Below, one piece after another: positions 13,693 to 33,852 of a DNA stretch of 64,000 nucleotides (position 1 is the stretch's first letter; every line of letters begins with the position of its first letter). The stretch covers positions 806,001 to 870,000 of the forward strand of contig CP160630.1 of the NCBI GenBank assembly GCA_038993745.2. The letters are read 5' to 3'. The notes under the pieces are model-generated. The model ran no database searches. It saw only the letters and a list, made by a program, of their open reading frames with translations, and was not told where the DNA came from. The position numbers and the translations under genes are program-made. The stretch is from Aliivibrio fischeri. Lineage in GTDB: Bacteria > Pseudomonadota > Gammaproteobacteria > Enterobacterales > Vibrionaceae.

Positions 13693-16600
13693 TCAACTTA
13701 TACCTTGTTCAGATGGTGCAGATCGAGTTTCAGTTTTATCTTTTATCCAACCTTTCAACCATTTTTTCTGTTCTTCTTTACCTTTTTTCTGCAAAGATTC
13801 CCATTTTGTTTGAGCCGATATATTGACCTTATCTAATTTATTTCCTACTTGAGTCCAAGGTAAATTCCCCTCATAAAAACTCTTACTTTCTGGTAATGCT
13901 ATTGATAATGGAGAACCTGATAAATATTTACTTTCAACCTTATCAATACCTTCTTGGTATAAGCCAAAAAGACGTAATTCAGAAGAATAAATTTCACCGG
14001 TGTCATCATCTAGTATCGGTCCAAACGGTCTTAATCCTTTTACCTTTTTGCCTGTTGGGGATATATAGTCTAAATCGAATTTCATGATATAAACTTTTCT
14101 AGTTCGCGTCCCTACATGCAGCATTGATTGTGGCGCACCTTTAACTCTTTCAAACACTTGAGAAGCAAAATTTACAAAGGATTGCTTCTCTTCAGTTTGA
14201 GCATCAAATTCAACATAATTAGAGTCTATATCTTTATAGGTATTGCCTTTCGAATATTTCACTATATTTTCAAGCTCATAATTAATGTCCATAACATGGA
14301 AAACAGAACTAAAATAACTTGGCCCTTTTCCCTTTGAGTCAGCCTTTCCAATAATTGAATCCTGTTCCTCAATACTTAACTTTAGCTGCATAGTGATTTT
14401 ATCAAGATTGAAACCAATACTCTTATAATCTTCACTATTATCTTTATCTGCTAATAAAGCCACATAAATCGATGCTGATTGCTCTTTACCCCAATTAAAT
14501 TGTTGCGAATTTATTGGTTTTTGCTTATCAAACCACTCAAATTTATTTCCTATATTTAGTGCAGCAAGCGGGGTGACATGCCCTTCTATATATGGTTTTT
14601 TACCAGCACCTTTAGTACTTTCATTCGCTTTAACAAAGCTTTCAACGAGCAAATCAGCTTCATTAATTACCGCACTTTGATTACCTAATCCATCAAAGAG
14701 ATATAACGGTTTAGTTGATGTATCAACACTCCCATCACTATGACATTGAAGCCCATAGGTATTATTATCATCAATGCCATACTTCATGTGTGAAGCAATA
14801 TTTTTCATTTGCTTGATTTCAGAAAGCGTTTGTCCCATCGAACCGATAGTTTTCATCTCAATACCTTTTGAACTAGGTATTTCAATTGAGGTATCGAGTA
14901 TCAATAAATTATTATTAAGCTTAAAGAAATATGACAGCGCTTTATATTTATCGTCTTTTTTCCATGAATCAAAGCTTTCCCACTGCGAATAACCAGAAAA
15001 CAAAGGCTTAAGACCGGGAATTTCATACTCACCGAACCAATAAGTGGGTTCAAACTCAACAGCAGTTAACGTTTGTGTTCCTTCTTTATCCGCAACATAG
15101 TTATCACCTAATTGTTGTGTGTAATATGAAATCAGCTCATTATCTGAAGTCCCACACACAGTTAAATCAGACACTTCTTTTGCCGATAACAAAACTTGAT
15201 ATTGAGGGCCATTAACATCAAGCCAACCGCGATCACAACCATAACTTAATGTTGCTTTAAAGAACTTCTTCGCATCTTCTGAAGCGTTTTTAGTTAATAC
15301 GACTTGTAATTTAACACGAGTAAATGGTGTGATACGGTTCGTTTTACCTTCTTCTTTCCACTTTGAATAAGGAGTCCATGATTTGTCATCATCTCGGTCT
15401 TTAAGTACCAATAAACGACTAAAACCAATATCATCAGATTTCACGTCTTGAGCTTTATTGTCAAACAACTTAGCAAAATCCACAAAACCACTCTCTTTAT
15501 CATCCATATACAAACTGGTCTGCACTGGAAATCCAGTCGTAAACTTACCTTGAATTTTAGCTCGCTTAGCCAAATGTTTTGTTCGTGAATATTCTGAATG
15601 GTAAGAATATTCATTCACTTGTTGCCCATAAAAATAATTAGCGCCCGACGATGACTTACTGACGTTATCATTTCTCACTTGGTTCAACCAATTCTGAGCC
15701 ATGGTGTTATAAGAAGATAAAGGTGCTTCCCAATTATCATTAAGAATATACGTCTCTATATAGTCTTGAACTCGATCGCTTGTGAGTTCTTTTTTATAGT
15801 CACTATTTGAACTGCTACCTAATGAAATTCTGGCAAGTAATTCAATTAAACCATTTAATGCTAATGCTCGAAGCAAGAAGCGTTTTTGTAACTCACGAGA
15901 TGTTTTTTGTGCCTTTAAAAATTCAACTATTTTATTTTTATCAGTATATCTTTTACTTACAATGTCTTCTTGCAAGCCGCGATACAGCTGCAATACCTCA
16001 ATGTGAATCTTACCTAGCTGATTTAACTCATTAATATTCTTATATTTAGCTTTAAAATCCTTGTAAGCCCCTTCAGTTAACATTGAATCTAAAAAGCTTA
16101 ATCCGCTATCAGCAATACTGGCTCCTTCTTTTATCAATAGAACCCCAGCTGCAACTGGAGCAATAGGTGTTAACATTGCTACACCCATTAAAGAATTGAA
16201 TACCGCTGATACTTGCTCTTTTTGATTATTATCTAATCCTAAATCAAAAGCTTGCTTGGCTTGACGAATTTTTTCTAAATCAATCATACCAGTCCGACTC
16301 GGCGGCAAAGCTAACGAATAAAGAGGTGGCAATAAACTGATTTCAACACGTCTATCAATAGCTAATGCTGAGTCATCCCCTGTTTCACTCATATCTACTT
16401 TGGCATTGTCAGCACTCATAGGTTGAGTGTTGCCATGTGACAAAGTAATAATACGTTCAGATAATGTTTTATCATCGGCTTTAATTATTATCGCGTTTTT
16501 AATTTCATCAGCACGATTAAATGCAACGAGGTTATTTGCCTTATTACTGCCTATTCGTCCAGCATGACCTTCAATTTGAATTCGATAATCTGGATGTGCT

Positions 16601-18626
16601 TTTAATAATTCAGCAATTCTTTCACAAACCATATCAATATCACTTCGTAATGTCGTACCGGTATTCGGTAGTTCCCACGAATTGAACTTAAAATTGATAT
16701 GAATAATTACTTGCGAATTTTTTGACACAATACGAGCTATTTGCTCTTTGCCTTTATTATTCAGAATCGATGTTGCATCAAGAAGTTGTTGGGCCCAATC
16801 AGCCTCGGCTTTTACCATCACAATTTTTTGCAAATAGTCTGTAGCGGCACTATCAAAGTTATCTTGTTCTTTGGCCGACTGTTTCTCCAACTTACCTTGT
16901 TTATCTACCAGTTGATAAAAATCATACATACTGCCAATACTATCTACAATAGGTAAGCCTTTAGCCAGTTTTGTATAAGCTCTTCCTTCAAACCAGCTTG
17001 CAGCAAGGTTTCGAGTACTAACAGATGCTCCTTGGTTTTGAAAGTTTTCTTTCATTTCTTTTAGCGCATTCTGCATAAACGGTTTATTAATAACACTTTT
17101 ACGAACCATTCTTTCTATAGTTTGCGTGGTTGTTAAATTAAATCGTTGTACTCTTTCAGTTACCTTAACCGCTTTTGTAAACGCATTACGAGCCTCTTTA
17201 ACTGATTGCAGCCCAAATAAAAAACTCGCTCCTGCAGTAAGTGGCTCAGGTAAAACACCCTCAACGGTTAATTTACCCCAAATATTTTTTGCCACACTGG
17301 TCGCAATTTGCTGGCTAGATAAATCACCAAACACACCAATGCCTTTTGTCGCAAAACCTTGAGCGTAAGATTGCGCTGTCTTTTGCACTGCGGATGCAAC
17401 ACCAAGCGTGGCTATACCAGTGCCTTTTAACGCCACTGTATTTCCTTGCTGTGTCATAAAATCAGAATAGCTAGGTAATGCCGTTGGGTATTGATAAATT
17501 AAACACTCTTCAAGAGAGATCAAATCACCACACACCATAGCCAACTTACCAAAACCGCTTATTGGTTTAAAAGTGACTTTTTCATGCAGTTCATAAGTAT
17601 AAACGTCTTGTACCGTTTTGCTGTCAGGATGCTCAATACTAGCTTCAAATTTTAGTTGCCCTTGCTTTACTGAATCAGGAAAAGTAACTTCTATACCTTC
17701 ATCTAAAATTGCTTTCTGTCGCTCTAAATATTCTTCGACCCAAAAACGCGTACGAAGCAGAAAATAACCATCATCAATCAATTTAGGATCAAAATTAAAC
17801 ACGACACTAGGTGTTATTTTCTTATAATCTTCTGGGTTACTTGTTTTATCATCACTTGGATCAGGTTTAGTGACAAAACTCGTGGCCAAGACTTTTTCTA
17901 CTTCACCTGAATTGTCTTGTTTTGATTTCACTTTAATAAGAGAAACTTCTGCTCCCACATACAAATCACTGCTGAACACCACCCCAAGCGAGTGAAAAAC
18001 AGGAGTAATGATGCCTTGAATCTCTTTTACTTCACTCGCTATAATTTTGTCATACCAAGCATTGTAATCATTCTGTTGATCTGTCAGCGGTTTACCGGGT
18101 TCTTTTTCATAAGGTTCAGCTAACTGGCTAACTTTGATTTTACTGATAGTAAATTCAATTAATTTGGAATATTTTTCTTCAACTTTTAATTTATTGGAAT
18201 AAATATCTTTTAGTGAATCGTTTAACGCTTTAACACTGGTGTGTGTTTCAGCCAGTTGTCCAATCACATTCAATGGCGGAAACATTAATGAATATGGTTT
18301 ATCTAAATTTAATTCACTAACAGTTAATGGCTGCTTATGACGCAAAAAGGTTTGTTTTTTTGCTACGGCTTCAGGTGCTGTATTCTCATCAAAATAACCT
18401 AGCTGACACAATAAACCGTCTTTGTTCGTGCCCATAATACAGGGCTTTCAGTATCATCAACCAAAACAGGTGTGAAAGGAATTGGGCGTATATTGTGTAA
18501 ATCATCCTCAGTTAAATCAGATGATTGATGCCAAGTTCTAAATTCTTTTTTCCGTCCGTTATCATGCAGATCAAAATATGCTCCTAACAGATAAACACTA
18601 TGGTCATAAGTTTTTAAAGCAGACAT
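13693..18626 (-). pseudogene. giant OmpA-domain protein, module copy 1 (C1), one frameshift
   Basis: Two frames join to make one gene. The N-terminal 75 codons start at 18626 (MSALKTYDHSVYLLGAYFD...) and the remaining ~1570 codons read on from about 18431 (GTNKDGLLCQ...). The intact paralogue C2 reads IWGTDK at this point, while here TTATGGGCACG lacks one G needed for LWGTNK. Restored length is about 1644 residues. The protein has a conserved N-terminal region (NIRPIPFTPVLV), helical middle parts, an internal OmpA-like domain (~635-775; motif IQIEGHAGRIGSNKANN), a hydrophobic segment (~810-847) and a long C-terminal beta-rich half. It has no signal peptide. It follows lipoprotein B1 with a one-base TAATG overlap. 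It is either a decayed copy or an intact gene with a sequencing deletion. Function unknown; T6SS association inferred. Confidence 0.75.
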
Positions 18627-19716
18627 TAGTTATTCCCCTTAAACCACAGACCATTGTTCGCTAATCCATTATATAAAATTGCATCTCCTGATAGCGCACC
18701 GTAATAGAATGCGCGCCATGACCACACACGGTCTCCAACACGATCAACAATTCTAACTTTAGCAAAGCTATCTAGTGCACTAAAATGAGCGTCTTTCCCT
18801 AAAATTTGAGCAGGCGTATAGTCTGTTGTCATCTGCTTTACAGTTCCTTTTTCTATATCAAAAAAGAATCCAAAAGAAGGGTTAGATCCCCATGCATAAC
18901 GACCTTCAGGATCAATTGAAGTTACATCTAATGAACGTTCATCCATTGACAGTGAACGATCGACACCAATCCAGTTGAGCTCGTCATTGGTATTCGCATT
19001 TTCAACCAAAACGCCAAAATCTAAAACAGTCGTTCGCTTTCCACCAAAGTTCACTGCTGTGGTTCTTACATCGAAATCAACCTCACTAATCTCACCCGTC
19101 TCAGAATCCCAACGAGAATAACGATTACGATATCTTTCATGATACAAATAGCGACTGTCTTCAGACCAAAGCATATCAAGTGGCGAAGTCGTATTCTGTA
19201 TAACTGTCACCTTACCCGTTTTTAAATCATACACACCTTTCTGACCACCTGAACCTGCCCAAGCAACGTAACGATTATTTGGTGAACGAGCTAAATTACG
19301 AATAGATGCAAAACCAATGGTGGCATCCGTCACTAAACGTAAATCAGTACCATCGTTTTCATGCTCCAAATTTTAAGCCCGCTCTCATATTCATCTTTTG
19401 AGCTTGAGTTAGCCCACGCAAATTGAAAACGCGGTAAATCGTATGAGCTGGCATCATTAAGGTCTTCTTTTGGCCACTCTTTGGCTTTTTCAATAAAGTA
19501 ACGTGGGAAATCTTGATACATTACTTTTAAATCTTTTTTTGTTGTGAATTGAATATCACCACTGCTTTCCATTGTGTAATAGTTATTCTCACCCACATAA
19601 GTACGATCTGGGTGTTGCTCTGCTCTTAATTGAGCTGCTTCTGCTGCCACACTTTCAGGGTCATTACACCCCATTAGAGTGATACTAAATAGTGCAAGTA
19701 ATAGTATTTTTTTCAT
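18626..19716 (-). pseudogene. beta-propeller-like lipoprotein, module copy 1 (B1), one frameshift
   Basis: The gene starts at 19716 with a lipoprotein signal (LLALFSITLMGC, Cys 17) and runs in one frame to KIWSMKT. It continues one frame over as DGTDLRLVTD to 18626. The intact paralogue B2 reads KIWSIKTDGTDLRLVTD without a break, so one base is missing near 19355. Restored length is 363 residues. The body has WD/TolB-like repeats such as SPNNRYVAWAG...GVYDLKTGKVTVI, SEDSRYLYHE...RWDSETGEISEV and DPEGRYAWGS...FFDIEKGTVKQM, suggesting a periplasmic or outer-membrane beta-propeller. It lies 4 bases after A1 and overlaps C1 by one base. An immunity or envelope-docking role is a guess. Confidence 0.75.
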
Positions 19717-19720
19717 TGTT

Positions 19721-21418
19721 CTAGCCTATTAATTCTGAAATTTTAATTTTTGTTTTCAAAACGGATAATTCGTATTCTGTTGTCCCTAAATCAGCACTTG
19801 CGCCGCGAATAATATCCACTTCTTCAACTTCTTTTGGCCAACCAGAAAAAGGGAGATTTAAGAAACCTTCATCGTCAGCTTTTGCTTGTCTGAAATAAAC
19901 TTTCTGTGACCATTCTTGCTCTTCATTTCTTAACATCATGAAATCATCAGGCTGGTCTGTTGTTCTGCAAATTCGGTAGCGTAATGTGATTTGATTTTTT
20001 GGTGGCATAACAGCGATTGCAGCAATATTGCTATCATTCTGCTCATTAATAATATGAGCCCCAAATGAACTACTTTTTGCTAAAGGAAGTGCATATATAT
20101 GTTCTCCTTCAAACGCTTGTTGCTGACTATAAACCGACATTTCATCAATAGACACTGCGATATTCGCATAATTAGCTTCTAGCGAACTTATTTCTGAATC
20201 GGATAATGAGGTTTGGCTGTAATACACATAACAATCAGCCTGAACTTCACCTAACAATTTATAAGGCAACCATACATGAGGCATTGGATAACTCATCGCT
20301 TGGCGTTCGTTAGAAGCACTGTTTTTTATTGGACTTTCAAAAGTAGTAAGAAGAATTTCATTGTGATCAAAGTCCACAAATTTCAATTCAACTTCTTCTG
20401 CAACTAAATTAAATACTCTTGATTGTTCACATACATCCAACTCACCTGAAAATACTTTTTGGCCTTCTTGATATAATTCAAATTTTTCAAAGGACATATT
20501 GGCTTCAGGGAAAAATTCAGATGCATTAATATTCACATGTCGTGTTGGCAGAGGTTCTTGTCTTTCATGCTGTATATCAAGATCACAAAAGTAACCATTG
20601 GAATCAATCGTAATTTCTCGCCATACTTTTCCATTCCAAATTACATAAAAATAACCAGTTTGATGTAAAGAATACTCTTCACCTAACTTCTTCATTGGTA
20701 CAACAGGCACCAATACCGTATCCCACTCATCCATTTCAGTCTCTTTATCAACAGGCTGAATATTTTCTGCAAGCAGAAGTTTTAATGGTTGTGGAGTACC
20801 ATTCATTGGAATAGTGAGATAAAGGTTTCTCAGCTCTGGTTCTAAATCTTTAAATGTCGCAATACTACGATGTGAAGCATGAATATCGGCTCTTGGTTTC
20901 GCTATTTTCTCTTTTTGCTCACCTGATTTAGCCAATAAAAGTGACGCCGCATTATTTGGCCACTGACCTGCAAACTCAATAGAAATCTTGTGTTCTGGCG
21001 ATGGCTCAACGGGTGTAAATAACAGATTACGAACCAAAGGCACATCATCAGTAACAGGTTTATAATTTGCTTTAACAAACTTAGCAGGTTGAGTTGTTTC
21101 AACTCTATCTATTTGCTTCTTCAGTTGTGGATATTGTGCAAGCTGGGTATCACTTACCCCCGTTTTTCTTATCGTTGTAGATACAGCGATCCACTCAGCT
21201 TTTGTTAACTTTTGGTTTAAAGAAAATAGCAGTGATTGTACGCTCTTACTTGCGGAGATAGACAAAGATTGGCGTAGTTGCACAGGTAATTGATTGATGA
21301 TGCTCTGTGAATTTTTCCCACGCGAAAGCAACCTAACGTATTCATCAGGCGTAAGGATATATTCAAGCTCTTTGTGTGATAAAGAAGAGCTGGGAATAAG
21401 CTTGCAGTTAAAATGCAT
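19721..21418 (-). CDS. MIX-motif-like T6SS-associated protein, module copy 1 (A1)
   Basis: The ATG at 21418 has GGAGA 8 bases upstream and matches the start of paralogue A2 (CKLIP...YILTP), giving 565 residues; an upstream ATG at 21442 is unlikely. There is no signal peptide. Around residues 230-262 the segment VLVPVVPMKK, then LHQTGYFYVIWNGKVWREI, resembles the MIX motif of T6SS effectors (shPxhh, then hRxGhhYhh), although the usual Arg is Gln. The conserved C-terminus ends WSQKVYFRQA...FSGWPKEV...ISELIG. A block IEFAGQWPNNAAS is shared with A2. It is the first gene of the A1-B1-C1 module, with a spacing of 4 bases to B1. It could be an effector, a carrier or a cytoplasmic partner of the giant C protein. 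Confidence 0.7.
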   Translation of the reverse strand: MHFNCKLIPSSSLSHKELEYILTPDEYVRLLSRGKNSQSIINQLPVQLRQSLSISASKSVQSLLFSLNQKLTKAEWIAVSTTIRKTGVSDTQLAQYPQLKKQIDRVETTQPAKFVKANYKPVTDDVPLVRNLLFTPVEPSPEHKISIEFAGQWPNNAASLLLAKSGEQKEKIAKPRADIHASHRSIATFKDLEPELRNLYLTIPMNGTPQPLKLLLAENIQPVDKETEMDEWDTVLVPVVPMKKLGEEYSLHQTGYFYVIWNGKVWREITIDSNGYFCDLDIQHERQEPLPTRHVNINASEFFPEANMSFEKFELYQEGQKVFSGELDVCEQSRVFNLVAEEVELKFVDFDHNEILLTTFESPIKNSASNERQAMSYPMPHVWLPYKLLGEVQADCYVYYSQTSLSDSEISSLEANYANIAVSIDEMSVYSQQQAFEGEHIYALPLAKSSSFGAHIINEQNDSNIAAIAVMPPKNQITLRYRICRTTDQPDDFMMLRNEEQEWSQKVYFRQAKADDEGFLNLPFSGWPKEVEEVDIIRGASADLGTTEYELSVLKTKIKISELIG

Positions 21419-22183
21419 GTAGGTCTCCACAACCATAAACAAAAATACAGTAATTGGTTGTAGTGATAATTAAGCTGATAAGGCTTAGGTATAACGATTT
21501 GGTGAGGCGATTTTACTTATTTTTCCTCTATCATTCAATTCACTCACACGAATTAATTCACATCCAATTAATCATATGAAATTTATGTGATCTTAAGTCA
21601 GGTATTCATCTATTTTTATTTTATATAAGCCAACGACAATAGACCGTAACAATACTTTATGTTTTGTTTATTCACACACTATGCTTTTAAATCTAATACC
21701 AACATATAAAAAACGTAATTTTGTTAACAAGCTCAAGACACCCTAGTTTAAAAATACAAATGATATGAAAAAATAAAACAAATAATTTACATAAAAATTA
21801 ATGGAAGCACTTACAACGCAATCAAAAGATAAGTTACCCTTATCATTTTTGAAATATAAGTTTACCAATCAGAATTAAAATAAACCCACCCATAGATTTG
21901 ACATTAAAAAATCACCTCTTTTAAAAAGTCAAAATAACAACAAAAAACTGACTTTTATGTCAAAAAAACAGACAACTAACATATTGCAGTCGCAATTCCA
22001 AGAATTACTTTCGAAGCAAGATCACACTTTGAAAAACTCTTGATATCCTTAAAAATTCTTCTGGTTAGAATGCTCGAAAATTCAATTCAGCTATTAATTT
22101 GATATTAATAAATGAATTTTGCGTGGTTCGATTCGAGGTTTTTGCCTAATTATAGTGGTTTAGGAATTAACCTTTTCGTAACA

Positions 22184-22211
22184 GAATGAACTCCTTTTAA
22201 ACGGTTCATTC
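22184..22211. repeat. 8-bp inverted repeat upstream of chitinase gene
   Basis: GAATGAAC (22184-22191) and GTTCATTC (22204-22211) form a perfect inverted repeat with a 12-base loop. It lies about 100 bases before the chitinase start and just before a possible leader ORF. It may be an operator or an mRNA hairpin. There is no T-run after it, so it is not a normal terminator. Confidence 0.5.
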
Positions 22212-22231
22212 AATCATAGGCAAGGAAGCGA

Positions 22232-22267
22232 ATGATGATGAAATCTATCCATCGCACACCTTTATAA
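22232..22267 (+). CDS. possible 11-residue leader peptide
   Basis: Three consecutive ATG codons follow a strong AAGGAAG ribosome site and open a frame for MMMKSIHRTPL, then TAA. It sits 46 bases before the chitinase GTG and just after the inverted repeat at 22184-22211. The ribosome site is better than that of the chitinase gene itself, suggesting translational coupling or attenuation. There is no homology evidence; it may be chance. Confidence 0.3.
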   Translation: MMMKSIHRTPL

Positions 22268-22313
22268 TTAATAAATTTATCTAGATAAGATAAATAAAAA
22301 AGAAGAAAAAGCA

Positions 22314-25300: not shown

Positions 25301-25673
25301 TGGTGTTGTTGTTGAAGCGCCACCAGAGAACCCGCTATACGCTGAACTGGATTTCTGTTCAAACCCAGGCTTAATTTGTAGCTCTGAAGAGAACAAAGAA
25401 ATCAAGTGGATTGCTGGTCTATTCTACTGGGTTACATCAGTACAAGCGTACCCTGATGAGTCTGGTCAATACGGTAACTGGAACTACCACAACGAGCTTA
25501 AGAAGTATGTTGATGGTGGTATGAAAGGTACTGAGTTTATCGATGATGTATCTGGTATCGTAAACCGTGGTTGTCCTGATTTAGTGTGTTCTACTGGTGA
25601 AGTACATAACGTTAAAGAACGTCGTGCTAACTTTAAACTGGTACTAGAGCAATTAGGCCTTAACCCACAATAA
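22314..25673 (+). CDS. multidomain secreted GH19 chitinase
   Basis: A GTG start preceded by an AAGAAGAAAAA purine run gives 1119 residues. A signal peptide ends near residue 22 (YLYAADA). Two chitin-binding modules of the CBM5/12 type follow (~28-80 and ~103-152; both contain NNPGVWE and a SSWFW/DSWFW core), joined by a Pro-Gly linker. Two Ig/cadherin-like beta domains (~157-252, ~262-350) and a third CBM5/12-like module (~368-420; PDWTRGDHATGGD, TIPGSDDSWAL) come next. Residues ~430-745 are an unassigned alpha/beta region. The C-terminal ~370 residues resemble GH19 chitinases: a candidate catalytic Glu in AQSMQETIR (~812) and WGRGVIQTTGRQNFG (~960). It should hydrolyse chitin outside the cell. 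It stands alone between the two A-B-C modules. Confidence 0.88.
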   Translation: MIKLNKITAAITSVMFSGYLYAADASATSNIVTFVPGETKVQNGDMVSFNGDCFIAKNNPGVWESPTADSWFWDVAECSGEPNPGPGPNPGPNPTPDPDLGDIIPFIPGKTQVENGDVVSYENQCFIAQNNPGVWETPSASSWFWTLTECSDEPVNPEPEVTELSILAPTAGQVLTANEAISINAHVDGNLAAKVEFWANNTKLSEKTVNQNNTQYSQTWTPSEEGNATINVFVFDKNNQKIEQKSVSVTVKAEVTEDFVAPVVKFVTPANGSTINVTESLSISVNATDADNDLATLVVKANNKEICSFDAANTDTFACDWQPTQAGNVTLNAIATDAQDLSSTATVKITVEEDVVEPPVEPPVTPGDLCKDFNVYPDWTRGDHATGGDIMVHDNIAYSAIYWTKTIPGSDDSWALHLNCDGTEPGTAPLLSLPNPMDPVRLEVAGWPNTLVVASPATSAPTTLTIQASNSADLADFDKLTSTFVSIINAAAQAGSASIIINSDVLDKATRDNALSSSSISVKEALTQAMDITGNKIDIDDINALSNDLKGWANAHHLIISTLAPEASYGWSLSIGDFAFDTHSGRQSVWDEASSFSADLLNKLELYKAELATKADFIAFTKSNTTEALSSDQWHNALEYVKQVSDYVKTPVMLNNIPTDQASAYFMGDKSSKPQIRKAAFSNVFAILFDKNTAELTAKIERYQDAKMPLYYVGKTTENGKLTVIDELNNQLANAEDAMNNTAFLYETPQSQWIPSTVYKWADFMEGLNAMHNIGVAGNKFWLLDENVDDATNIKYAKVAIAAFLAQSMQETIRYNACDENNWSEIKYGAPADYPMSASCGQLGQKYADYGVNPISGLDHAYSCPRDDKMEVSALTHAKWYGAPAPVFAAPDAVLEERGLLVNGSVGRWTNNGHCNDVPTAVDTSKQVWERDTCKTYVDQKAGSFIWDGSSQESVQGCGWWGRGVIQTTGRQNFGTLNHYLGRSHVDPETIGKTIDGVVVEAPPENPLYAELDFCSNPGLICSSEENKEIKWIAGLFYWVTSVQAYPDESGQYGNWNYHNELKKYVDGGMKGTEFIDDVSGIVNRGCPDLVCSTGEVHNVKERRANFKLVLEQLGLNPQ

Positions 25674-25722
25674 TTTGGTTAAGCTAACTAGGTAATTAAT
25701 TATCTAATACAGTTAAATGAAT

Positions 25723-25757
25723 AAGAACCCTGCTTTTCGAAGTGGGGTTCTTTTTTT
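25723..25757 (+). terminator. rho-independent terminator after chitinase gene
   Basis: AAGAACCC pairs with GGGTTCTT around a short loop (TGCTTTTCGAAGTG), followed by a run of T. It lies about 50 bases after the chitinase stop. Confidence 0.88.
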
Positions 25758-25903
25758 GTAATAAACAAAGTAAGAATGAAGTGGACAAATCAGAAGTGGT
25801 TTTATAAAAATGACAGATACGAAAAAACACGCAATAAAGCGTTTAATTTTAAATAATTGGGAGTTTAAAACTAGAACAATCTCTAAGAAGGGGAAGCAAG
25901 AGA

Positions 25904-25978
<75 letters not shown>

Positions 25979-26116
25979 ACATCGTTGGAACGAGATAGAT
26001 AATGCCATACTGAGCGCTGAGGTAAAGCACTTTTTTACACTTAACTAATTGATTGCATGATATTTAAGCATAATATGCAAATTTTAATCTCTTCACACCA
26101 TACGATAGGTATAAAT

Positions 26117-26173
26117 AGTAAGCACCGTCAGCCTATTTGTTGCTAGTTTATCTGAACGATGCTTACTTTTTTA
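26117..26173. terminator. hairpin downstream of C2 (possible terminator)
   Basis: AGTAAGCACCGT (26117-26128) and ACGATGCTTACT (26156-26167) form a 12-bp stem with one mismatch that can pair as G-U on the minus-strand transcript. The better T-run is on the plus strand, so its use as the terminator for the leftward C2 gene is uncertain. Confidence 0.45.
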
Positions 26174-26175
26174 CA

Positions 26176-29100
26176 TTACAAAAATTGCTTAGACTTTAAT
26201 TCAATGGCGGTCGGTTGTTTCTCTATCCATTTTTTTATTCGCTGTATGCGTTGTTTTTCATCTAACCCATCCCACTCACTAGCAATATCTCCACTGACTC
26301 CCTGTTTACCCTTAGCTCCAGGTTCCATCCATGGCATGGTTTGATCATTTAACTGACTATGATTCAATGTCGGCATGGCTAACTTTAATGTTTTACCATC
26401 TAAAGACACGCCAGATTCTGTATTAAGCTGCTTAAGCTCAGTTACGTTTAAATTAAACAAGTGCTCCTTACTTTGTACAATGTCACCAAATGGACGTAAC
26501 CCCGACGCATTAATCCCTGTTGGCGTCATATACTTAAGGTTAAAGCTGATCACATGCACTGCGTATGCTTTCTTCTTATCCAATGAAGAAGAGCTATTAT
26601 TTAATTCATGGATAGACAGATTTAAAAAGGTACTGATTTTATCAGTTAATGTCTCTTTACTTTCTTTATCTATTGAAAGATTCCAAGCACCATTATGACA
26701 AATCTCCCCAACATAATTGAGTGTTGATTGATAAATTGGCCCACCCACTTTTTTGACATTAGCGTTTTTATTCAAATAACTTTCAGTATAAGAGGACGAA
26801 TTTTCAGTATGATTACTCGCTTGGTGATAATGGTACGATGTTTTTTCTTCCTCTGACACATAACCTGCTGTTTGTAATTGCACCATGGCGTCTACGCTTT
26901 TCCAATCCACCTTTAAGGTTTCATATTCGTCTTTATGGCTCTCACCGCAAACCAATATATGCAATGTCTCTAATTCATCCGCTTTATCCCATGAAAAACC
27001 ACCTATTGTTTGCTTTTCATTCTTGGGTTTAGCTAAGTAGCATTTGTTTTTGTAATCAACTCCTACCGCTTGATAAAGTACTTTATCGATGACATTTATA
27101 GAAACGCTTTCACCAACAGTCTGTGAATAAGTAAACTCTTCAACCTCTAATAATCGTCCTTCAGAAATAAAGTTAAGGGTTTGTGTCGAACCACTACTGC
27201 TGTCTTCCAGTATGACTTTATGGCTATTTTCACTGCGCACACCAATGTGAATTTCATCATTATTATTCTCATCAAACAATATGGCTTGATGATGCTTACT
27301 GTTCGGTTTTTGCAATTGCAGTTCGTAACGCATATGTCTAAAACCACCACTAGATACATATTCTTCAAAAGCGCTCTCTTTCACATTCAGTATTTTTTGC
27401 AACCCTAGCCAATGTATAGCATACAAGGATTCAACTCGCAGCTTACTTACTATCGGTTTTAAACCATAAATTCGTTGGTTACCAAAATAATAGAAAGGTT
27501 CAAATTCAATCGCAGTTAACGCTTTTTCTTGACCAAATACAGCCTTTAATTTCTCATCTTGATAGGTAAAATCAGACAATGCCATTGGTTTAAATAATAC
27601 GCTGAATTTTGGCCCTTCAATATTTGCACCATCAACTCGTTGATAGCCTATTTCATAAGGGAATACAGATTTATCTTCGCCACTTAAAACAATTTGTATT
27701 TTTAAACGGTGGAATGGCGATAAGCGATTAATCTTAACTCTTTGATTTTCTTTCTTCCATTTTGAATACTCAACCCACTCTTTACCTTCTTGATCTGAGA
27801 CTAATACTCGTTGAAGAGCTATCTCATCTAAATCAATGGCTGGCGGTAATGGAGAAAAGTTTTGTGCAAATTCTTCAAATAAATTGTTTCTTTCTTTGTT
27901 TTCACTTGGTAGTTCATACAATAATCCCTGAACAGGAAATGCACGGCTAAACTTTCCGCTCACTGTTCCTTTATCTTGTGGCGCTTGATATTGCAGATAA
28001 TTGAATGCAGGAACCGGTGTAGGTAAGGTTTGATAATGTAGGGTGATATCTTGCTTCTGTTTCTGTTTGCACTGATTGATCCAATCGGTCCCTAAATCAT
28101 TACTTTTAATCGTATTGACTGACCATGAATCATTTTGCAGATACTTTTCGATATAGCCCTTAATATCGTATTTATCTAACGTTAAATTTAAATTTTCACC
28201 TGATTGCATCTTCTGGTTTTCACTATGAGCGTAAAGCAAAACCATCATCAATCCGTTAAAAGCCAGTGCTCGTAATTGATAACGCTTTAGTATTTCATTT
28301 TTAGTTTCATCTTTAGTTAAATACGCGGTTAAGCTCTCATAACTCGTGAGTTTTGTTTCTAACTTACTGTCCCACTGTCTTAACTGACTTAATAATTCCA
28401 TTTGTATTTTGGCTAAATCAGCAAGATCGTCTTTCGCCCCTTCTGTTTTGACAATGGTTTCATAAGCGTAATCAAAAAGCATTTCATCTAAGAAAGCCAA
28501 ACCAGATTGAACAATATTAGAACCTTCCTTTATTAATAACATACCTCTTGCTGCGGGCCCTATAACAGGAATAAAACAAGCAACTCCTACGAGTGATTCT
28601 AACAACGCAAGTTGGGCAGCTAATATTGCATCATCCTCTTTTTGCATTGCATTTAGCGTAATTAGACGAGAACGTTCTAGCACCCCTATTCCACTTCTAC
28701 TTGGTGCATACACAATATCAAGAACCTTTAAGTAAGCTTTTATCTTTACTCTGCGGTTTACTTTTAATTTAAGATTATCTGATGAAACTTCTCGTCCTGT
28801 GGCCTCTACTAATGGCTGAGTTTCACCAAAGGCAATCACCGTTATTTTTTCTTGAAGTTTTTTAGGGAATAGATCAGCAACATTTTGTGCCCGTTGCTGC
28901 GATAAATTCATATTATATTGATTGGTGCCGACCTGACAGGTGTGGCCTTCAATAACGATATGAACATCAGGTTGCTTCTCTAAGAAAGAGACAATATCTG
29001 CAATACCTTGACGAACCATTGATGTATCTGCGGTTTTCTTATCAAACTCAAAAACCACTTCAATCCCAGAGCCGTAGTCGTCATTAAACAAGGTCTTATT

Positions 29101-30909
29101 TTTAATCGTTAATTGCTCAAAAGCCTGTTTATTTTCTTTATTTATTTCTAATTGCGTTTCCGTCCAAACTGGAATATGTTTCAAATATTCACTAGCAACC
29201 TCAGCCATATTGCCACGCGCTTTTTCTGCTTTTTTCTTTTGCTCAGCAATTTCTTTTCCGTGATTAAAAAGCGCGGCAATATTATTTAATGTATCAACGG
29301 CGACTAACCCTCGCCCAGCCAAATCAGCACCTTGCAGCCATGTTTTTGATAATCGACCAACTGCGGCTTTGTATTTTCCATCTTTAAATTCTTGGTTAGC
29401 CTTAGCGAGATATTCGGTAAATTGAGCATACTTCTCTTTATCAAAAATGGTGGATTTAAATAATGCCGATGCACCAAATTCAGCACGATAAGTCGCACTA
29501 CCAGCTTGTAATGCGGTTAGCTCTTTTAATTTACCAAGCCCTTCTCCCATTGATTGCAAGCCAAATAAAATTTCTCCCGTGGCTTGCATTGCTGTTGGTA
29601 AATTCTTATTTTTTATTTCTTCCCAATACAGCTTGGCAATATTATTTACCATTGCAGTTGGGCCATTATCTAGCTGTGGCGTTAAGCCATCCGCCAATAA
29701 ATCCATACCAAGCATCATGCTTACTTTGTTAGCTCCGGTTAATACCGCAAGGCTCGTTAAAGCAGGGCTTTCAAGGGCTTTTGTATTGGTTGCTTTTCCT
29801 TTTAAATGCGCAGTGAGATGCGAAAGATATTGTGGAAACTGGCAGATTAAAGATTCTTCAAGGGAAATCATATCCCCACACACAATGGCCATTTTTCCTA
29901 ATGGTGTGTGATTATCAAAACGTATGTATTCTCGGAGTTCGTATTGGTAGCTTGTAATACCATCAAGATCGACGATCTTTGTAATATTTGCATTAGTGAT
30001 ATATTCCGGAATACCACCATCAAAATTATCTGGGTGAAAATTTACTCGAATACTGTAATACCCTTCTTGGAAGGATTCAGGGTTAACATTGATAAGTGCA
30101 CTTGGGAAATCATCAGTACCCTCTTCAGGAAAAGCTACAGGGATATCACTTGCTATAGTTTCCCAGTTTGAACTTCCTTCTTTTGATATAAATTTCGATA
30201 CACTAATTCTTGCATTGATATACACTTTTGAAGAAAAAACGACACTGCATATCGCTTGTGATGGCAATAAAAACCCTTTTAAAGACTCTCCCTTTTTAGA
30301 TACCTCTTCATGCCATTGGTTATACTCTTTTTGCTCCTGAGATAATGACCCATTTAATGAGGGTTCAAATGGCTTAGCGAGTTGATCTACCCCTATCTCA
30401 GTTAAAGCAAATGTCACGTCACTATCTTTGTCTACCATAGAGGAATAACGGTATAACTCTTTTGCTATCTCTATGGGCGTGGTTTTGCTAATGGCCAAGC
30501 GACTTAAAATAGCTAACGGCGGAAAACACAATGAATACTGGTCATCATCTAAATGGTTGACCACACTTTTATGCTGAAGGTATTCAAAATCGCCACTTTC
30601 TTCAATCGTTTGTACGCCAGTATCAAGTGCATGGATCAGCCCATGTTTATCTGTTCCCCAAATGCCATTGGTTTCTTGATCTTCTACTCGTTCGCTTAAT
30701 TCTTTTATATTGGCAATTAAGGGAGTAAAAGGAACAGGGCGAATGTTATCTACACCATTATTTTTTCTATCATTTCCAAGAGTTACGATTTTTGGATTTG
30801 AATGCCAATCCTGATAAACATATCGACCTAGTTTTTCATCATTTTCCCCATAAAAATGCGTAGAAAATAAATAAATCCCTTCAGCTAGCGCCGTTTTATT
30901 ACTCATCAT
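26176..30909 (-). CDS. giant OmpA-domain protein, module copy 2 (C2)
   Basis: This intact 1577-residue paralogue of C1 has no signal peptide. The N-terminal region (DNIRPVPFTPLIANI, NGIWGTDKHGLIHAL) and a segment beginning GKMAIVCGDMISLEESLICQ are shared with C1. An OmpA-like peptidoglycan-binding domain lies internally (~605-725; VHIVIEGHTCQVGTNQYN and a C-terminal NRRVKIKAYL). Just after it is a hydrophobic stretch with Gly and Pro (~766-805; GVACFIPVIGPAARGMLLI). The C-terminal ~750 residues are beta-rich and unassigned, with repeated IEFEPFYYFGNQRIYGLKP-like parts. It overlaps the end of B2 by 4 bases. The internal domain and hydrophobic segment without a signal fit a large T6SS cargo that acts in a target envelope, but a cell-envelope structural role cannot be excluded. 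Confidence 0.75.
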   Translation of the reverse strand: MMSNKTALAEGIYLFSTHFYGENDEKLGRYVYQDWHSNPKIVTLGNDRKNNGVDNIRPVPFTPLIANIKELSERVEDQETNGIWGTDKHGLIHALDTGVQTIEESGDFEYLQHKSVVNHLDDDQYSLCFPPLAILSRLAISKTTPIEIAKELYRYSSMVDKDSDVTFALTEIGVDQLAKPFEPSLNGSLSQEQKEYNQWHEEVSKKGESLKGFLLPSQAICSVVFSSKVYINARISVSKFISKEGSSNWETIASDIPVAFPEEGTDDFPSALINVNPESFQEGYYSIRVNFHPDNFDGGIPEYITNANITKIVDLDGITSYQYELREYIRFDNHTPLGKMAIVCGDMISLEESLICQFPQYLSHLTAHLKGKATNTKALESPALTSLAVLTGANKVSMMLGMDLLADGLTPQLDNGPTAMVNNIAKLYWEEIKNKNLPTAMQATGEILFGLQSMGEGLGKLKELTALQAGSATYRAEFGASALFKSTIFDKEKYAQFTEYLAKANQEFKDGKYKAAVGRLSKTWLQGADLAGRGLVAVDTLNNIAALFNHGKEIAEQKKKAEKARGNMAEVASEYLKHIPVWTETQLEINKENKQAFEQLTIKNKTLFNDDYGSGIEVVFEFDKKTADTSMVRQGIADIVSFLEKQPDVHIVIEGHTCQVGTNQYNMNLSQQRAQNVADLFPKKLQEKITVIAFGETQPLVEATGREVSSDNLKLKVNRRVKIKAYLKVLDIVYAPSRSGIGVLERSRLITLNAMQKEDDAILAAQLALLESLVGVACFIPVIGPAARGMLLIKEGSNIVQSGLAFLDEMLFDYAYETIVKTEGAKDDLADLAKIQMELLSQLRQWDSKLETKLTSYESLTAYLTKDETKNEILKRYQLRALAFNGLMMVLLYAHSENQKMQSGENLNLTLDKYDIKGYIEKYLQNDSWSVNTIKSNDLGTDWINQCKQKQKQDITLHYQTLPTPVPAFNYLQYQAPQDKGTVSGKFSRAFPVQGLLYELPSENKERNNLFEEFAQNFSPLPPAIDLDEIALQRVLVSDQEGKEWVEYSKWKKENQRVKINRLSPFHRLKIQIVLSGEDKSVFPYEIGYQRVDGANIEGPKFSVLFKPMALSDFTYQDEKLKAVFGQEKALTAIEFEPFYYFGNQRIYGLKPIVSKLRVESLYAIHWLGLQKILNVKESAFEEYVSSGGFRHMRYELQLQKPNSKHHQAILFDENNNDEIHIGVRSENSHKVILEDSSSGSTQTLNFISEGRLLEVEEFTYSQTVGESVSINVIDKVLYQAVGVDYKNKCYLAKPKNEKQTIGGFSWDKADELETLHILVCGESHKDEYETLKVDWKSVDAMVQLQTAGYVSEEEKTSYHYHQASNHTENSSSYTESYLNKNANVKKVGGPIYQSTLNYVGEICHNGAWNLSIDKESKETLTDKISTFLNLSIHELNNSSSSLDKKKAYAVHVISFNLKYMTPTGINASGLRPFGDIVQSKEHLFNLNVTELKQLNTESGVSLDGKTLKLAMPTLNHSQLNDQTMPWMEPGAKGKQGVSGDIASEWDGLDEKQRIQRIKKWIEKQPTAIELKSKQFL

Positions 30910-32120
30910 TTACCCTCCTTGATAAATGCACCATTATTTGCAAAACCGTTGTATAACCAAGACAGTGTTGCGGAATGGCCTGAGCAGATTTGTCCCCAAT
31001 GCTGAGTTTGAGCAAATAACTTTTTATCTTTTGTTAATTTATATTGCCTTGCACTGCCTGCTGAAGCCGAACGAACATATTCGGCATTAAGTCCTAATAC
31101 ATCAAAAAATCGGTATTGGCTTTTTCTCTTACGATCAATTGTTTCTACCAATACATCTCGTGTTTCTGTATTAATGAGCACTCTATATTTTGTCGTTTCT
31201 CCCCAGACATACTTACCTTCAGGACTAATCGATTTATTTTTCCATTTAAATTCTGAGCTGTATTTTGAACCTTGCATAAATCGTTCATAATTTGCGTCAG
31301 TTTTTTGGGGATAACCTATACCATATAGTCTTTTATCCGTTTTTTCGTCATACACAATGACAGCAAAATCAGAGACCACATACCGCTTTCCACCGTATAT
31401 CACCCCAACTTCTGAGAAATGAAATTCATCGTCCATTTGAGTGGTTTTGCCTGTAGCAAGTTCGTATTTCCAATATTTGGCTCTGTCTTCAAAATATAAA
31501 TAGCTACTGTCTTCTGCCCAGAGAAATTGAGAATGGCCTCTGTCTGTACCTAAAACTGTCGACTCTTGGGTTTCTAAATCAAAAATAACTTTTTCAACGT
31601 TATTACTCCAAGCTAAGTAGCGATTATTAGGTGACCGACGCATCATTTTAACCGTTACCGCTCTGTTATGTGGCCTTGGCGGAACAACATCTAAAAAATC
31701 AGTCACTAATCGTAAATCGGTGCCATCTGTTTTTATGCTCCAAATTTTGTCTCTCGCTTCATAAATCGCTTTCTCATCTGATGAGGCATTAGTAAATTCA
31801 CCATTGTCCCACCTAAAATCCACTCTCGGTAAGTCATACGAATCCGCATTTGATAAATCTTCTCTTGGCCACTCTTTGGCGCTGTTCACCACAAAGCAAG
31901 GCTTCATTATTCCCGGAATTGTGCCATTGGCTTCTTTCATTAAGATATAATTGTCTTTAGTGACATAAACACGGTTATCATCCCACTCTTGCTTGTTAAG
32001 CAATTCGACGTCAGTTTTTGGTGGTTCGACGGCTGTACTTAACGTTGAGAATTCGTCTTGGTTGCATCCGTTTAGGAAAATAAGCGCAGATAATGCTGTC
32101 CATAGGTATTTTGAATTCAT
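30906..32120 (-). CDS. beta-propeller-like lipoprotein, module copy 2 (B2)
   Basis: This 404-residue protein has a lipoprotein signal peptide (LWTALSALIFLNGC, Cys 19; Asn follows). It shares with B1 the order lipobox, VYVTKDNY, AKEWPREDLSNADSYDLPR, KIWSIKTDGTDLRLVTD and propeller-like repeats (RRSPNNRYLAWSN...IFDLETQESTVLG; WAEDSSYLYFEDRAKYWKYELATGKTTQM; SPEGKYVWGETTKYRVLINTETRDVLV). It is probably anchored to the outer membrane facing the periplasm. It starts 8 bases after A2 stops and overlaps C2 by 4 bases, so the three are co-translated. It could be an immunity protein for the module or a docking factor; neither is shown. Confidence 0.75.
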   Translation of the reverse strand: MNSKYLWTALSALIFLNGCNQDEFSTLSTAVEPPKTDVELLNKQEWDDNRVYVTKDNYILMKEANGTIPGIMKPCFVVNSAKEWPREDLSNADSYDLPRVDFRWDNGEFTNASSDEKAIYEARDKIWSIKTDGTDLRLVTDFLDVVPPRPHNRAVTVKMMRRSPNNRYLAWSNNVEKVIFDLETQESTVLGTDRGHSQFLWAEDSSYLYFEDRAKYWKYELATGKTTQMDDEFHFSEVGVIYGGKRYVVSDFAVIVYDEKTDKRLYGIGYPQKTDANYERFMQGSKYSSEFKWKNKSISPEGKYVWGETTKYRVLINTETRDVLVETIDRKRKSQYRFFDVLGLNAEYVRSASAGSARQYKLTKDKKLFAQTQHWGQICSGHSATLSWLYNGFANNGAFIKEGK

Positions 32121-32127
32121 GGTGTCC

Positions 32128-33852
32128 CTACACTAATTCACTGATTGCAATGTCTTGGTAAATGATGATTGGCGGTTGCTCAGGGTGATACTCATTCCCT
32201 TTGTTTACTCGTTTTAACGTGACGGTTTTAACCTCACTTGGCCACCCCGTAAATCGAATAGATTGATAGCCATCATCCAGTGCTGAGGCTTGACCTAAGT
32301 ACACCTTTTGTGACCATTTGTACTCTGTATTAAATAACTCAAAGTAGTCATCAGGTTCATCGACTGTAGGATGTTGACAATAAGCAAAAACAATCTCATC
32401 TTGTGGTGATGATATAAGTAAAGCTGCAATACCTTGCTCGCTTTGCTTTTCAATTGACGCTGGTAAAGCCTGACTTGAAAGTGACGATTGAAGTGCAATA
32501 ACAGACGCTCTATCATCATTAAATTGTTGTAATTCAGTATAGCTATCAAGCCCTTCTATACGCTGTGCCATGGTCTCTGGATTACTGGCTAACTCAGATA
32601 ATTGATCATCAGTCAGCTGAGGCAAACTATGATATGCATAAAGGGTTTGAGGTTGACCTGCGATTTTGTAAGGTCCCCAAATATGTGGTAATGCGTGCCC
32701 AGAAACGGGGCGTATTTCACTTTGTTTTGAGCCAAATAAACTCTCTGTCGTTTCTAACTCGATTGAATAATGAGTTGGAGTTTGAGGCAACTCAATAATG
32801 ACTTTATCTTCCGTTAAATCAAAAACTCTTGCTTGCCCATAAACATCAAGCACGCCACTAAAAACCGTTTTTCCATTTTGTTTTACATCAAAAGGTTCAT
32901 CTGAAAAATAACAGCCGTATTCTGGATGTGTTAAGGCAATATCTACATATCGATTAGCTACTTTTTCACCAGAATTGGATTTGTTCTCACTCGTTAAATC
33001 GATATCCATAAACAGGTAATCTTTAGTGATTTTTAGTTCTCGCCAAACGTTATTATTCCACACTATATAAATATAACCGGATGGGTAAAGAGAAGCCTCT
33101 TGAGGAAGAAAATCACTATTTTTTGCTTTAAAAGGCACCATAGGCACTAACACATTATCCCACTCTGCCATTTCTGTTTCTTTGGTTACAGGAGGTAATG
33201 ATTCGCTCAGTAACAGGTTTATCTCTTTGGCTGAGTTCATACTTGGTAACGTCAAATACAGTGCTCGATTTCTATCATCTAAAGACGTAAATTCGACGAG
33301 ACTCCGGTGTCCATTTTTGTTGTCTTTTTTTGGCTTTACTGTCTTTTCATTGATGTTTTTTAATTTTGAAATCGAGATTGATGCCGCGTTATTAGGCCAT
33401 TGCCCTGCAAACTCGATGACGATTTTATTATCATTCTTTTTTTCAGAAATAAGAGTAATGGATGAGGCGTTTGAACTTGAACGAAGTAAGGTCGGTTTTA
33501 CTTTTAAACGAGAACGAGTAACCGAGGGGTTAACCACTTTATCAATACGTTTTTTTAGACCACTTCCTTGAGCTAAATGCAGAGTATCTATACTTCTATG
33601 TTGGTTCATTAACGATAATGCAGCCCACTCCCCCTGTTCAACTAATTGACGAATACGACTGACGGTTTGAAATACCCCTTGTGAATCACTAATTGCAGAA
33701 TGACGCTGTAAATTAATAGGTAACGACGCTTTTAATGAAGATAGATCAGTAAAACGATTAAGATGATCCAGTAATTCATTGGGAGTGAGTATATACGGCA
33801 AATCTTTTTGGGTAAGTAGGCGACCGGGGATAAGTTTAAATTGGCAGAGCAT
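32128..33852 (-). CDS. MIX-motif-like T6SS-associated protein, module copy 2 (A2)
   Basis: The ATG at 33852 (GGAG six bases before it) matches the start of A1 and gives 574 residues; the longer frame to 33933 is not needed. The protein is soluble and resembles A1 throughout: CQFKLIPGRLLTQKDLPYIL at the N-terminus, IEFAGQWPNNAASISIS near 170, the MIX-like block VLVPMVPFK followed by LYPSGYIYIVWNNNVWREL near 235-265, and the C-terminal EYKWSQKVYLGQA...FTGWPSEV...ISELV. It heads the A2-B2-C2 operon. The Arg typical of the MIX core is replaced by Pro, so the assignment is tentative. Conserved synteny with A1 makes a joint function of the three proteins likely. Confidence 0.7.
   Translation of the reverse strand: MLCQFKLIPGRLLTQKDLPYILTPNELLDHLNRFTDLSSLKASLPINLQRHSAISDSQGVFQTVSRIRQLVEQGEWAALSLMNQHRSIDTLHLAQGSGLKKRIDKVVNPSVTRSRLKVKPTLLRSSSNASSITLISEKKNDNKIVIEFAGQWPNNAASISISKLKNINEKTVKPKKDNKNGHRSLVEFTSLDDRNRALYLTLPSMNSAKEINLLLSESLPPVTKETEMAEWDNVLVPMVPFKAKNSDFLPQEASLYPSGYIYIVWNNNVWRELKITKDYLFMDIDLTSENKSNSGEKVANRYVDIALTHPEYGCYFSDEPFDVKQNGKTVFSGVLDVYGQARVFDLTEDKVIIELPQTPTHYSIELETTESLFGSKQSEIRPVSGHALPHIWGPYKIAGQPQTLYAYHSLPQLTDDQLSELASNPETMAQRIEGLDSYTELQQFNDDRASVIALQSSLSSQALPASIEKQSEQGIAALLISSPQDEIVFAYCQHPTVDEPDDYFELFNTEYKWSQKVYLGQASALDDGYQSIRFTGWPSEVKTVTLKRVNKGNEYHPEQPPIIIYQDIAISELV

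What the first reader, a model, noticed from the sequence alone, without database searches (positions are those of the whole stretch)
13693..33852. A three-gene module (MIX-like protein, propeller lipoprotein, giant OmpA protein) present twice
A1-B1-C1 and A2-B2-C2 have the same order, strand, tight spacing (4-8 bases A to B, overlapping B to C) and clear protein similarity, yet they are diverged and separated by a chitinase gene and a tRNA. The first copy lies directly against the clpV-vasH operon. I know no described system with exactly this trio. The layout (cytoplasmic motif protein, lipoprotein, very large peptidoglycan-binding-domain protein without signal) would fit a T6SS-delivered weapon with its adaptor and immunity, or a new envelope machine. 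This is the best candidate for an undescribed system in the window.
Basis: partly seen in the sequence, partly recalled or inferred. Interest (0 to 1): 0.85.

Follow-up and report, generated by a model that had tools for sequence, protein, structure and literature searches.

The report
Twin T6SS binary effector modules
The repeated three-gene unit is an Aliivibrio version of a weapon already described in Vibrio: a carrier protein and a very large toxin fired together by the type VI secretion system, with a lipoprotein that probably protects the shooter; what may be new is which part of the toxin the protector recognises.

Summary
The trio is real and present twice, but not undescribed. It matches the "binary effector module" of Vibrio parahaemolyticus: VP1388 (MIX co-effector), VP1389 (immunity), VP1390 (OmpA_C toxin). 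In V. coralliilyticus BAA-450 the homologs stand as A-B-C beside vasH-clpV-hcp-vgrG, and that strain's published T6SS1 secretome lists a VP1390-like effector and a MIX co-effector. Additions: copy 1 has a frame break in both B1 and C1, and in a close relative C1 is split by an integrase-core ORF. C's OmpA domain lacks the canonical Asp in all 27 aligned C proteins. Silent-site mosaics in module 2 show B changing together with C residues about 201-350, while 51-200 stays nearer background. I propose that C's N-terminal beta-rich region is recognised by the immunity protein. The toxic activity remains unknown.

The parts
32128..33933 (-). A2: MIX-type co-effector, VP1388-like (likely start near 33852-33858)
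   Evidence: homolog in L015 stands where the published co-effector would be
33037..33078 (-). A2 residues 286-299, the G-Y-x-Y...W-R-E stretch taken as the MIX motif (motif recalled, not from a call)
   Evidence: G286, Y289, W292, W297, R298, E299 invariant in 17 aligned sequences
30906..32120 (-). B2: lipoprotein with lipobox (LNGC, +2 Asn), proposed immunity protein, VP1389 position
26176..30909 (-). C2: 1577-aa effector, VP1390-like
29860..30309 (-). C2 residues 201-350: mosaic block that changes together with B2; proposed part of the immunity-recognition region
   Evidence: predicted beta-rich
28735..29061 (-). C2 OmpA_C-like domain (about 617-725); canonical Asp replaced by Cys658, Arg673 and Asn666 kept
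28531..28593 (-). C2 residues 773-793: most hydrophobic stretch by family average, in a low-confidence helical region
19721..21442 (-). A1: MIX-type co-effector of copy 1, open ORF
18626..19716 (-). B1: immunity lipoprotein gene of copy 1, split by a frame break; intact copies exist in relatives
13693..18626 (-). C1: effector gene of copy 1, frame break near its 5' end; OmpA domain at 16387-16692
11522..13126 (+). VasH-like sigma-54 activator of the T6SS cluster
8857..11535 (+). ClpV/TssH of the T6SS cluster
7886..8404 (-). Hcp/TssD
5739..7817 (-). VgrG/TssI, the presumed carrier of the A-C pair
2966..3943 (-). DUF2169 protein in the VgrG gene group (a known T6SS adaptor family)
   Evidence: adaptor role from passages of PMC10673891
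25904..25978 (-). tRNA-Gly(TCC) between the two modules; V. fischeri T6SS2 islands are described as ending at a tRNA-Gly

Best explanation
Each A-B-C unit is a T6SS binary effector module of the VP1388-VP1389-VP1390 kind. [quoted passage not shown] B, a lipoprotein facing the shooter's own periplasm, binds C and neutralises it. In this Aliivibrio the units stand on both sides of a tRNA-Gly at the edge of the T6SS2 gene group. Copy 2 is open throughout; copy 1 lacks an intact B and an intact C as sequenced. I propose that B recognises C's N-terminal beta-rich region (clearest for residues about 201-350) and not the OmpA domain. Shown here: homology, synteny, co-occurrence, mosaics, domain layout, damage. 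Inferred from published homologs: loading, co-secretion, periplasmic toxicity, immunity. Inferred by me: the site of recognition.
For: L015 (V. coralliilyticus BAA-450) has A-B-C-B' then vasH-clpV-hcp-vgrG; the paper on that strain reports T6SS1-secreted VP1390-like WP_006961156.1 (VIC_RS16350) and MIX co-effector WP_006961158.1 (VIC_RS16360) (passage). V. alginolyticus and V. proteolyticus homologs are also T6SS1-secreted (passages). VP1388/89/90 roles: passages. A-B-C strictly consecutive on one strand in 13 of 19 named Vibrionaceae loci, with extra B genes, a stub or a split C in 3 more. C in 61, A in 62, both in 60 of 329 genomes; same-strand A within 5 kb of C in 57 of 61; ClpV over cut-off in 59 of 61 versus 138 of 268 without C, Fisher p 7e-13. 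Extra B genes in 5 of 19 loci. Recognition region.
Against: No secretion, binding or toxicity was tested for Aliivibrio. VP1390 itself was not compared letter by letter (the primary paper is not held), and locus tags were not available in L015. ClpV lies within 20 kb of a C in only 44 of 61 genomes (some contigs end early, but G013, G200 and G121 are far), and G003 keeps module 2 while its one ClpV over cut-off is of another type. The MIX profile match is weak (E 0.027). In the correlation test the windows that pass the 99% level are 1-40 and 141-180; windows inside 201-350 reach only 0.22-0.33 and do not pass; 1-40 touches the B gene, where linkage alone could explain it; two of three groups peak elsewhere.
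Confidence: 0.9

Rival explanations
1. A new cell-envelope machine not fired by the T6SS, with C as a peptidoglycan-anchored scaffold.
For: OmpA fold in C; B is a lipoprotein; module 2 persists in G003, whose one ClpV over cut-off is of another type.
Against: Homologs are T6SS1-secreted in three published secretomes (passages); 59 of 61 C genomes have ClpV over cut-off; A-type N-termini are fused to Rhs and Ntox3 proteins in relatives.
Confidence: 0.04
2. C kills by acting on peptidoglycan through its OmpA domain, and B blocks that domain.
For: A review files VP1390 under peptidoglycan-targeting effectors and another says its OmpA_C domain mediates peptidoglycan binding; Arg673 and Asn666 are invariant in 27 of 27.
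Against: The canonical Asp is Cys in 17 and Gly in 10 of 27, while 5 of the 6 other OmpA domains of this genome that my pattern caught have Asp (8 loci searched of 14 other OmpA places); the OmpA region shows no positive co-variation with B (windows 601-740, r -0.36 to -0.01).
Confidence: 0.3
3. C kills by inserting into or permeabilising a membrane with the helical region after the OmpA domain (about 738-1020).
For: Hydrophobic stretch 773-793 (family mean hydropathy 1.68) and predicted helices; swelling and lysis reported for VP1390 (passage).
Against: Model confidence there is low; the stretch passes the single-sequence TM threshold in C2 and C1 but in none of the six other C proteins tested, P0014, P0015, P0016, P0018, P0026, P0028; no fold match was obtained for it.
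Confidence: 0.3
4. The B/C mosaic is plain linkage: recombination carried B and whatever lay next to it, without any fit between B and C's N-terminal region.
For: C's first 50 codons, touching B, are as divergent as the block; in copy 1 the tract shared by the window and L026 runs on from B into C; windows inside 201-350 do not pass in the correlation test.
Against: In module 2 codons 51-200 keep pS 0.15-0.23 between two more divergent stretches (0.37-0.57 and 0.43-0.47) in all three window comparisons, and the pair with a largely shared B (G002-L009) shows no extra divergence in the block, 0.15.
Confidence: 0.35
5. The frame breaks in copy 1 are sequencing errors and copy 1 is intact.
For: One base each, at or near short runs; C1 still shows purifying selection, dN/dS 0.11 against G002; B1 is one open ORF in G002.
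Against: No frame-changing gap in A1, A2, the chitinase gene, vasH, clpV or the rest of C1, and C2 and B2 are open; C1 is split by an integrase-core ORF in G002.
Confidence: 0.35

Closest known systems
Binary effector module VP1388-VP1389-VP1390 of V. parahaemolyticus T6SS1 (Dar et al. 2022; not read, known here only through passages of other papers)
   Same: Gene order co-effector-immunity-toxin, OmpA_C domain in the toxin, encoded in the T6SS cluster
   Different: Here two diverged copies flank a tRNA-Gly; C proteins of other clades are about 19-38% identical to C2; copy 1 is broken as sequenced; host is an Aliivibrio
Va01565/Va01560/Va01555 of V. alginolyticus T6SS1 and Vpr01s_06_00050/60/70 of V. 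proteolyticus (passages)
   Same: MIX I protein, small immunity gene, OmpA_C VP1390 homolog (1539 aa in V. proteolyticus)
   Different: Other species; no second copy is mentioned in the passages seen
Polymorphic MIX effectors
   Same: A-type N-terminal region (about 1-300) occurs fused to Rhs, Ntox3 and LysM/PF20249 proteins in relatives
   Different: A1 and A2 matched no toxin domain over cut-off
Sequential displacement of effector-immunity genes in V. cholerae (PMC5361080, listing only)
   Same: Extra immunity genes and effector stubs beside the active unit
   Different: Here breakpoints also fall inside A (near residue 240-260) and inside C

Membership tests
T6SS binary effector module (VP1388-1389-1390) | Adjacent co-effector, immunity and toxin genes on one strand | tested here: met
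   both window copies; 13 of 19 named loci strictly, 3 more with extras
T6SS binary effector module (VP1388-1389-1390) | Toxin homologous to VP1390 with OmpA_C domain | tested here: met
   with the BAA-450 VP1390-like effector; the VP1390 sequence itself was not aligned
T6SS binary effector module (VP1388-1389-1390) | Co-effector homologous to the MIX protein VP1388 | tested here: met
   the A homolog of BAA-450 stands where the published MIX co-effector would be; VP1388 itself was not aligned
T6SS binary effector module (VP1388-1389-1390) | Encoded with a T6SS | tested here: met
T6SS binary effector module (VP1388-1389-1390) | Mutually dependent secretion and VgrG1 binding | not testable with these tools
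   published for VP1388/VP1390 (passages)
T6SS binary effector module (VP1388-1389-1390) | Middle gene gives immunity | not testable with these tools
   published for VP1389 and Va01560; here only co-variation and extra copies
MIX domain proteins | MIX profile match | tested here: inconclusive
   A1 to NF047924 (VPA1263) E 0.027 over 42 residues, far under its cut-off; A2 no match
OmpA_C peptidoglycan-binding domain | OmpA_C fold | tested here: met
OmpA_C peptidoglycan-binding domain | Asp of the TD..G motif and Arg of LS..RA (ligand role recalled, not from a call) | tested here: not met
   Asp in 0 of 27 (Cys 17, Gly 10); Arg in 27 of 27
Beta-propeller fold for B | Propeller domain | tested here: inconclusive
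   sub-cut-off Pfam hits for B1's second piece, best E 0.001, none for B2; no solved-structure match for B2; B was not folded
TasL cell-contact lipoprotein of V. fischeri T6SS2 | Lipoprotein over 380 kDa | tested here: not met
   B2 is 404 aa; TasL size from a passage
Zorya ZorB | Whole-protein ZorB match | tested here: not met
   best hit PDLC00609 covers residues 523-729 of C2's 1577

The most novel reading that the evidence does not exclude
The VP1390-type effector is a polymorphic toxin built the other way round: its exchangeable, immunity-matched part lies in the N-terminal beta-rich region (clearest at about 201-350) and is swapped together with the immunity gene between Aliivibrio strains, while an OmpA domain without the canonical Asp serves as something other than a standard peptidoglycan clamp. 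Strains would then fall into compatibility types set by a short cassette, a testable basis for strain exclusion in the squid light-organ symbiont.
Probability: 0.38. Interest if true: 0.6.

Novelty: new member of a known kind. Interest (0 to 1): 0.42.

Why it matters
A 2023 review states that, to its authors' knowledge, no T6SS effector had been functionally characterised in Vibrio fischeri (passage), although strains use T6SS2 against each other in squid. Modules beside this T6SS2 are concrete candidates, and the region of C that changes with B gives a direct hypothesis for which strains tolerate each other. The missing canonical Asp also questions the statement that VP1390's OmpA_C domain mediates peptidoglycan binding.

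Tried and rejected
TasL was considered for B and rejected on size. The Zorya ZorB hit is confined to the OmpA/MotB region; no other PADLOC match was convincing. Solved-structure searches: all 60 rows shown of 62 for C match the OmpA region; A none; B2 none. The N-terminal beta region, both helical regions and the C-terminal region are barely tested, and no claim of a new fold is made. The third protein search, with the C profile, added only two fragments. The lipobox pattern hit 23 of 33 B proteins; the 10 misses include window B2, whose LNGC is visible, so the pattern was too strict. In the genome searches few candidates per genome were scored (2, up to 12), so copy numbers per genome are lower bounds. 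The place lists were copied by hand and leave out second segments of the same gene and short fragments; genome tallies agree with those calls. Sixteen of the 30 loci L030-L059 repeat named loci, and the 27 C proteins include seven pairs over 90% identical. Papers: passages only were seen of PMC10673891, PMC12724144, PMC9765294, PMC11371242, PMC9040878, PMC9515649, PMC9972734, PMC8861277, PMC10433429, PMC4549250, PMC12826047, PMC5666596; PMC12195295 was searched without a hit; PMC5361080 is known only from a listing. Searches behind any 'not in print' impression; Dar et al. 2022 could not be read, so a mapping of C may already exist there.
Full report
WHAT IS THERE. The window lies on the second contig of a 4.35-Mb two-contig genome. 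The closest relatives of C2 are named Aliivibrio fischeri (96% identity, P0006) and A. sifiae, so the host is most likely an Aliivibrio. Six genes on the minus strand form two A-B-C units. A1/A2, B1/B2 and C1/C2 are homologous. Copy 1 stands next to a 166-aa ORF, VasH and ClpV; Hcp, VgrG and a DUF2169 protein follow. A tRNA-Gly and a chitinase-like gene separate the copies. V. fischeri T6SS2 islands are described as lying between manA and a tRNA-Gly, with OmpA proteins among the variable genes after vasH (passages). From this I infer that copy 1 is inside the island and copy 2 just beyond its tRNA; manA was not looked for.

COPY 1 IS DAMAGED. B1 is split over two frames, and the 5' end of C1 is out of frame with the rest; against L026 each shows one internal one-base break. 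A1, A2, the chitinase gene, vasH, clpV and the rest of C1 show no frame-changing gap against G002; C2 and B2 show only compensating alignment gaps in divergent stretches and are open. G002, a close relative, has the same order antiporter-A2-B2-C2-tRNA-chitinase-A1-B1-C1-ORF-VasH-ClpV, with B1 open but C1 split around a reverse ORF with an integrase core. A. sifiae (G005) has both modules open. Copy 1 is probably decaying in this clade, although a sequencing error in the window cannot be excluded.

WHAT IT IS. A scan of the genome collection with an alignment of 12 C proteins gave 21 loci, 19 of them Vibrionaceae (the other two, L028 and L029, match only in the OmpA region). In 13 of the 19, A, B and C are strictly consecutive on one strand (counting the ORFs that it lists). 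L017 and L020 have extra B genes or a stub in between and L025 has C in two ORFs; L011 shows no A, L012 starts inside B at a contig end, and L024 has A on the other strand. VasH lies next to C or one gene beyond in 8 of 19. In all 30 best-scoring loci L030-L059 of the genome survey, the window's own included, a B gene lies directly before C; 16 of these repeat named loci. L015 is V. coralliilyticus ATCC BAA-450, where the unit stands against vasH-clpV-hcp-vgrG; the survey's copy of that stretch (L048 of G137, contained in L015) comes from a genome with one C place and one A gene found, few candidates being scored. The published T6SS1 secretome of BAA-450 contains a 'VP1390-like' protein and a 'MIX domain-containing co-effector' with locus numbers 16350 and 16360 (passage). 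V. alginolyticus Va01565/Va01560/Va01555 and V. proteolyticus Vpr01s_06_00050/60/70 are the same arrangement (passages; the 2015 paper then did not think Va01555 an antibacterial effector, for want of an immunity gene). Reviews report that VP1388 and VP1390 interact, depend on each other for secretion, coprecipitate with VgrG1, that VP1390 lyses cells from the periplasm and that VP1389 gives immunity (passages). The trio is therefore a known kind of system.

SURVEY. Of 329 Vibrionaceae genomes, C was found in 61 (E <= 1e-20), A in 62 (E <= 1e-12) and both in 60; C only in G008 (a fragment with nine stops), A only in G098 and G319. ClpV over the curated cut-off: 197 of 329 and 59 of 61 with C (misses G008, G077), hence 138 of 268 without C; Fisher p 7e-13. 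The genomes are related, so the p-value is only indicative. A same-strand A lies within 5 kb of a C in 57 of 61; ClpV within 20 kb in 44 of 61, within 10 kb in 39. The 17 others include short contigs, but also real distance (G013 244 kb, G121 69 kb, G200 721 kb, G043 26 kb, G186 33 kb).

MODULARITY OF A. A. fischeri P0036 is 95-98% identical to A2 over residues 1-240 and then turns into an A1-type tail (59-100% by window); P0048 is 95-98% identical to A1 over 1-240 and then has a tail like neither. On A. sifiae chromosome 1 an A-type N-terminus with another tail precedes an unrelated 1209-aa ORF. A-type N-termini are fused to Rhs repeats (L069), Ntox3 (L068) and LysM/PF20249 domains (P0049). 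The N-terminal ~300 residues thus behave as a delivery region, as expected for a MIX co-effector; the direct profile match is weak.

MODULARITY OF B AND C. Between the window and G002, dS is 0.09-0.22 for A1, A2, C1 (rest) and C2, but 0.80 for B2 and 0.45 and 0.63 for the two B1 pieces (vasH, 0.47, is also high). Along C2, pS for codons 1-50, 51-200, 201-350, 351-800, 801-1577 is 0.57, 0.23, 0.46, 0.14, 0.15 against G002; 0.49, 0.15, 0.47, 0.13, 0.12 against L009; 0.37, 0.17, 0.43, 0.14, 0.17 against L010. G002 and L009, whose B2 proteins agree at 96-100% per 50 residues except 86% at the start and 41% around 251-300, show 0.57, 0.17, 0.15, 0.14, 0.14. At protein level P0011 shares its block with P0008/P0009 (96-97%) though 83-84% alike in 801-1577, and the window shares its block with P0006 fully though 92% alike there. 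In copy 1 the window and L026 share the second B1 piece and roughly the first 400 codons of the open part of C1 (pS up to 0.24), then diverge. Across 33 non-duplicate modules (of 52 found) and 53 within-group pairs, B identity, corrected for overall C identity, correlates best with C residues 1-40 (0.58) and 141-180 (0.57), above the 99% level of permuted maxima (0.54); every window up to 360 is positive, and beyond that none exceeds 0.22. Against a simple reading: windows inside 201-350 reach only 0.22-0.33 and do not pass; 1-40 touches B; the Vibrio group of seven peaks at 1141-1180 and then 81-120, and the copy-1 group at 521-560 (0.84) ahead of 121-160 (0.78). I read this as B matching C's N-terminal region, most clearly 201-350 in the Aliivibrio module 2, with moderate confidence.

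LIMITS. No experiment was done; Dar et al. 2022 was not readable; the toxic activity of C stays unknown. Membrane action and peptidoglycan action are both open.

Noticed in passing
L066:7511-14529 (A. sifiae-like genome G005, chromosome 1): An A-type N-terminus with a different tail precedes a 1209-aa ORF without Pfam match and a 472-aa leucine-rich-repeat protein: a possible further co-effector unit with other cargo.
   Followed up: partly
L069:3892-12665 (G098): A MIX-like N-terminus fused to an Rhs protein lies beside an 861-aa C-like protein that matches C2 310-771 only, so the C-terminal half of C may be dispensable.
   Followed up: partly
L070 and L071 (G003, whose contig length equals that of L009, A. 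fischeri emors.2.1): Module 2 is present although the one ClpV over cut-off is of a different type; module 2 may be orphaned or use another T6SS.
   Followed up: partly
window 13127-13627: A 166-aa ORF directly after vasH, conserved beside vasH in the Aliivibrio relatives L026, L061 and L062, without a Pfam or NCBIfam match.
   Followed up: no
L065:16354-18801 (G013): A truncated A, a second B and a short C-like stub lie beside the open units, as if an older unit had been displaced.
   Followed up: partly
window 22314-25673: Protein with Ig-like and chitin-binding domains; its C-terminal part carries what I recall as a GH19 chitinase signature, but no Pfam catalytic domain was reported.
   Followed up: partly
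window 46288-47424: Permease weakly similar to LolC/E lipoprotein-release proteins, far under that model's cut-off.
   Followed up: no
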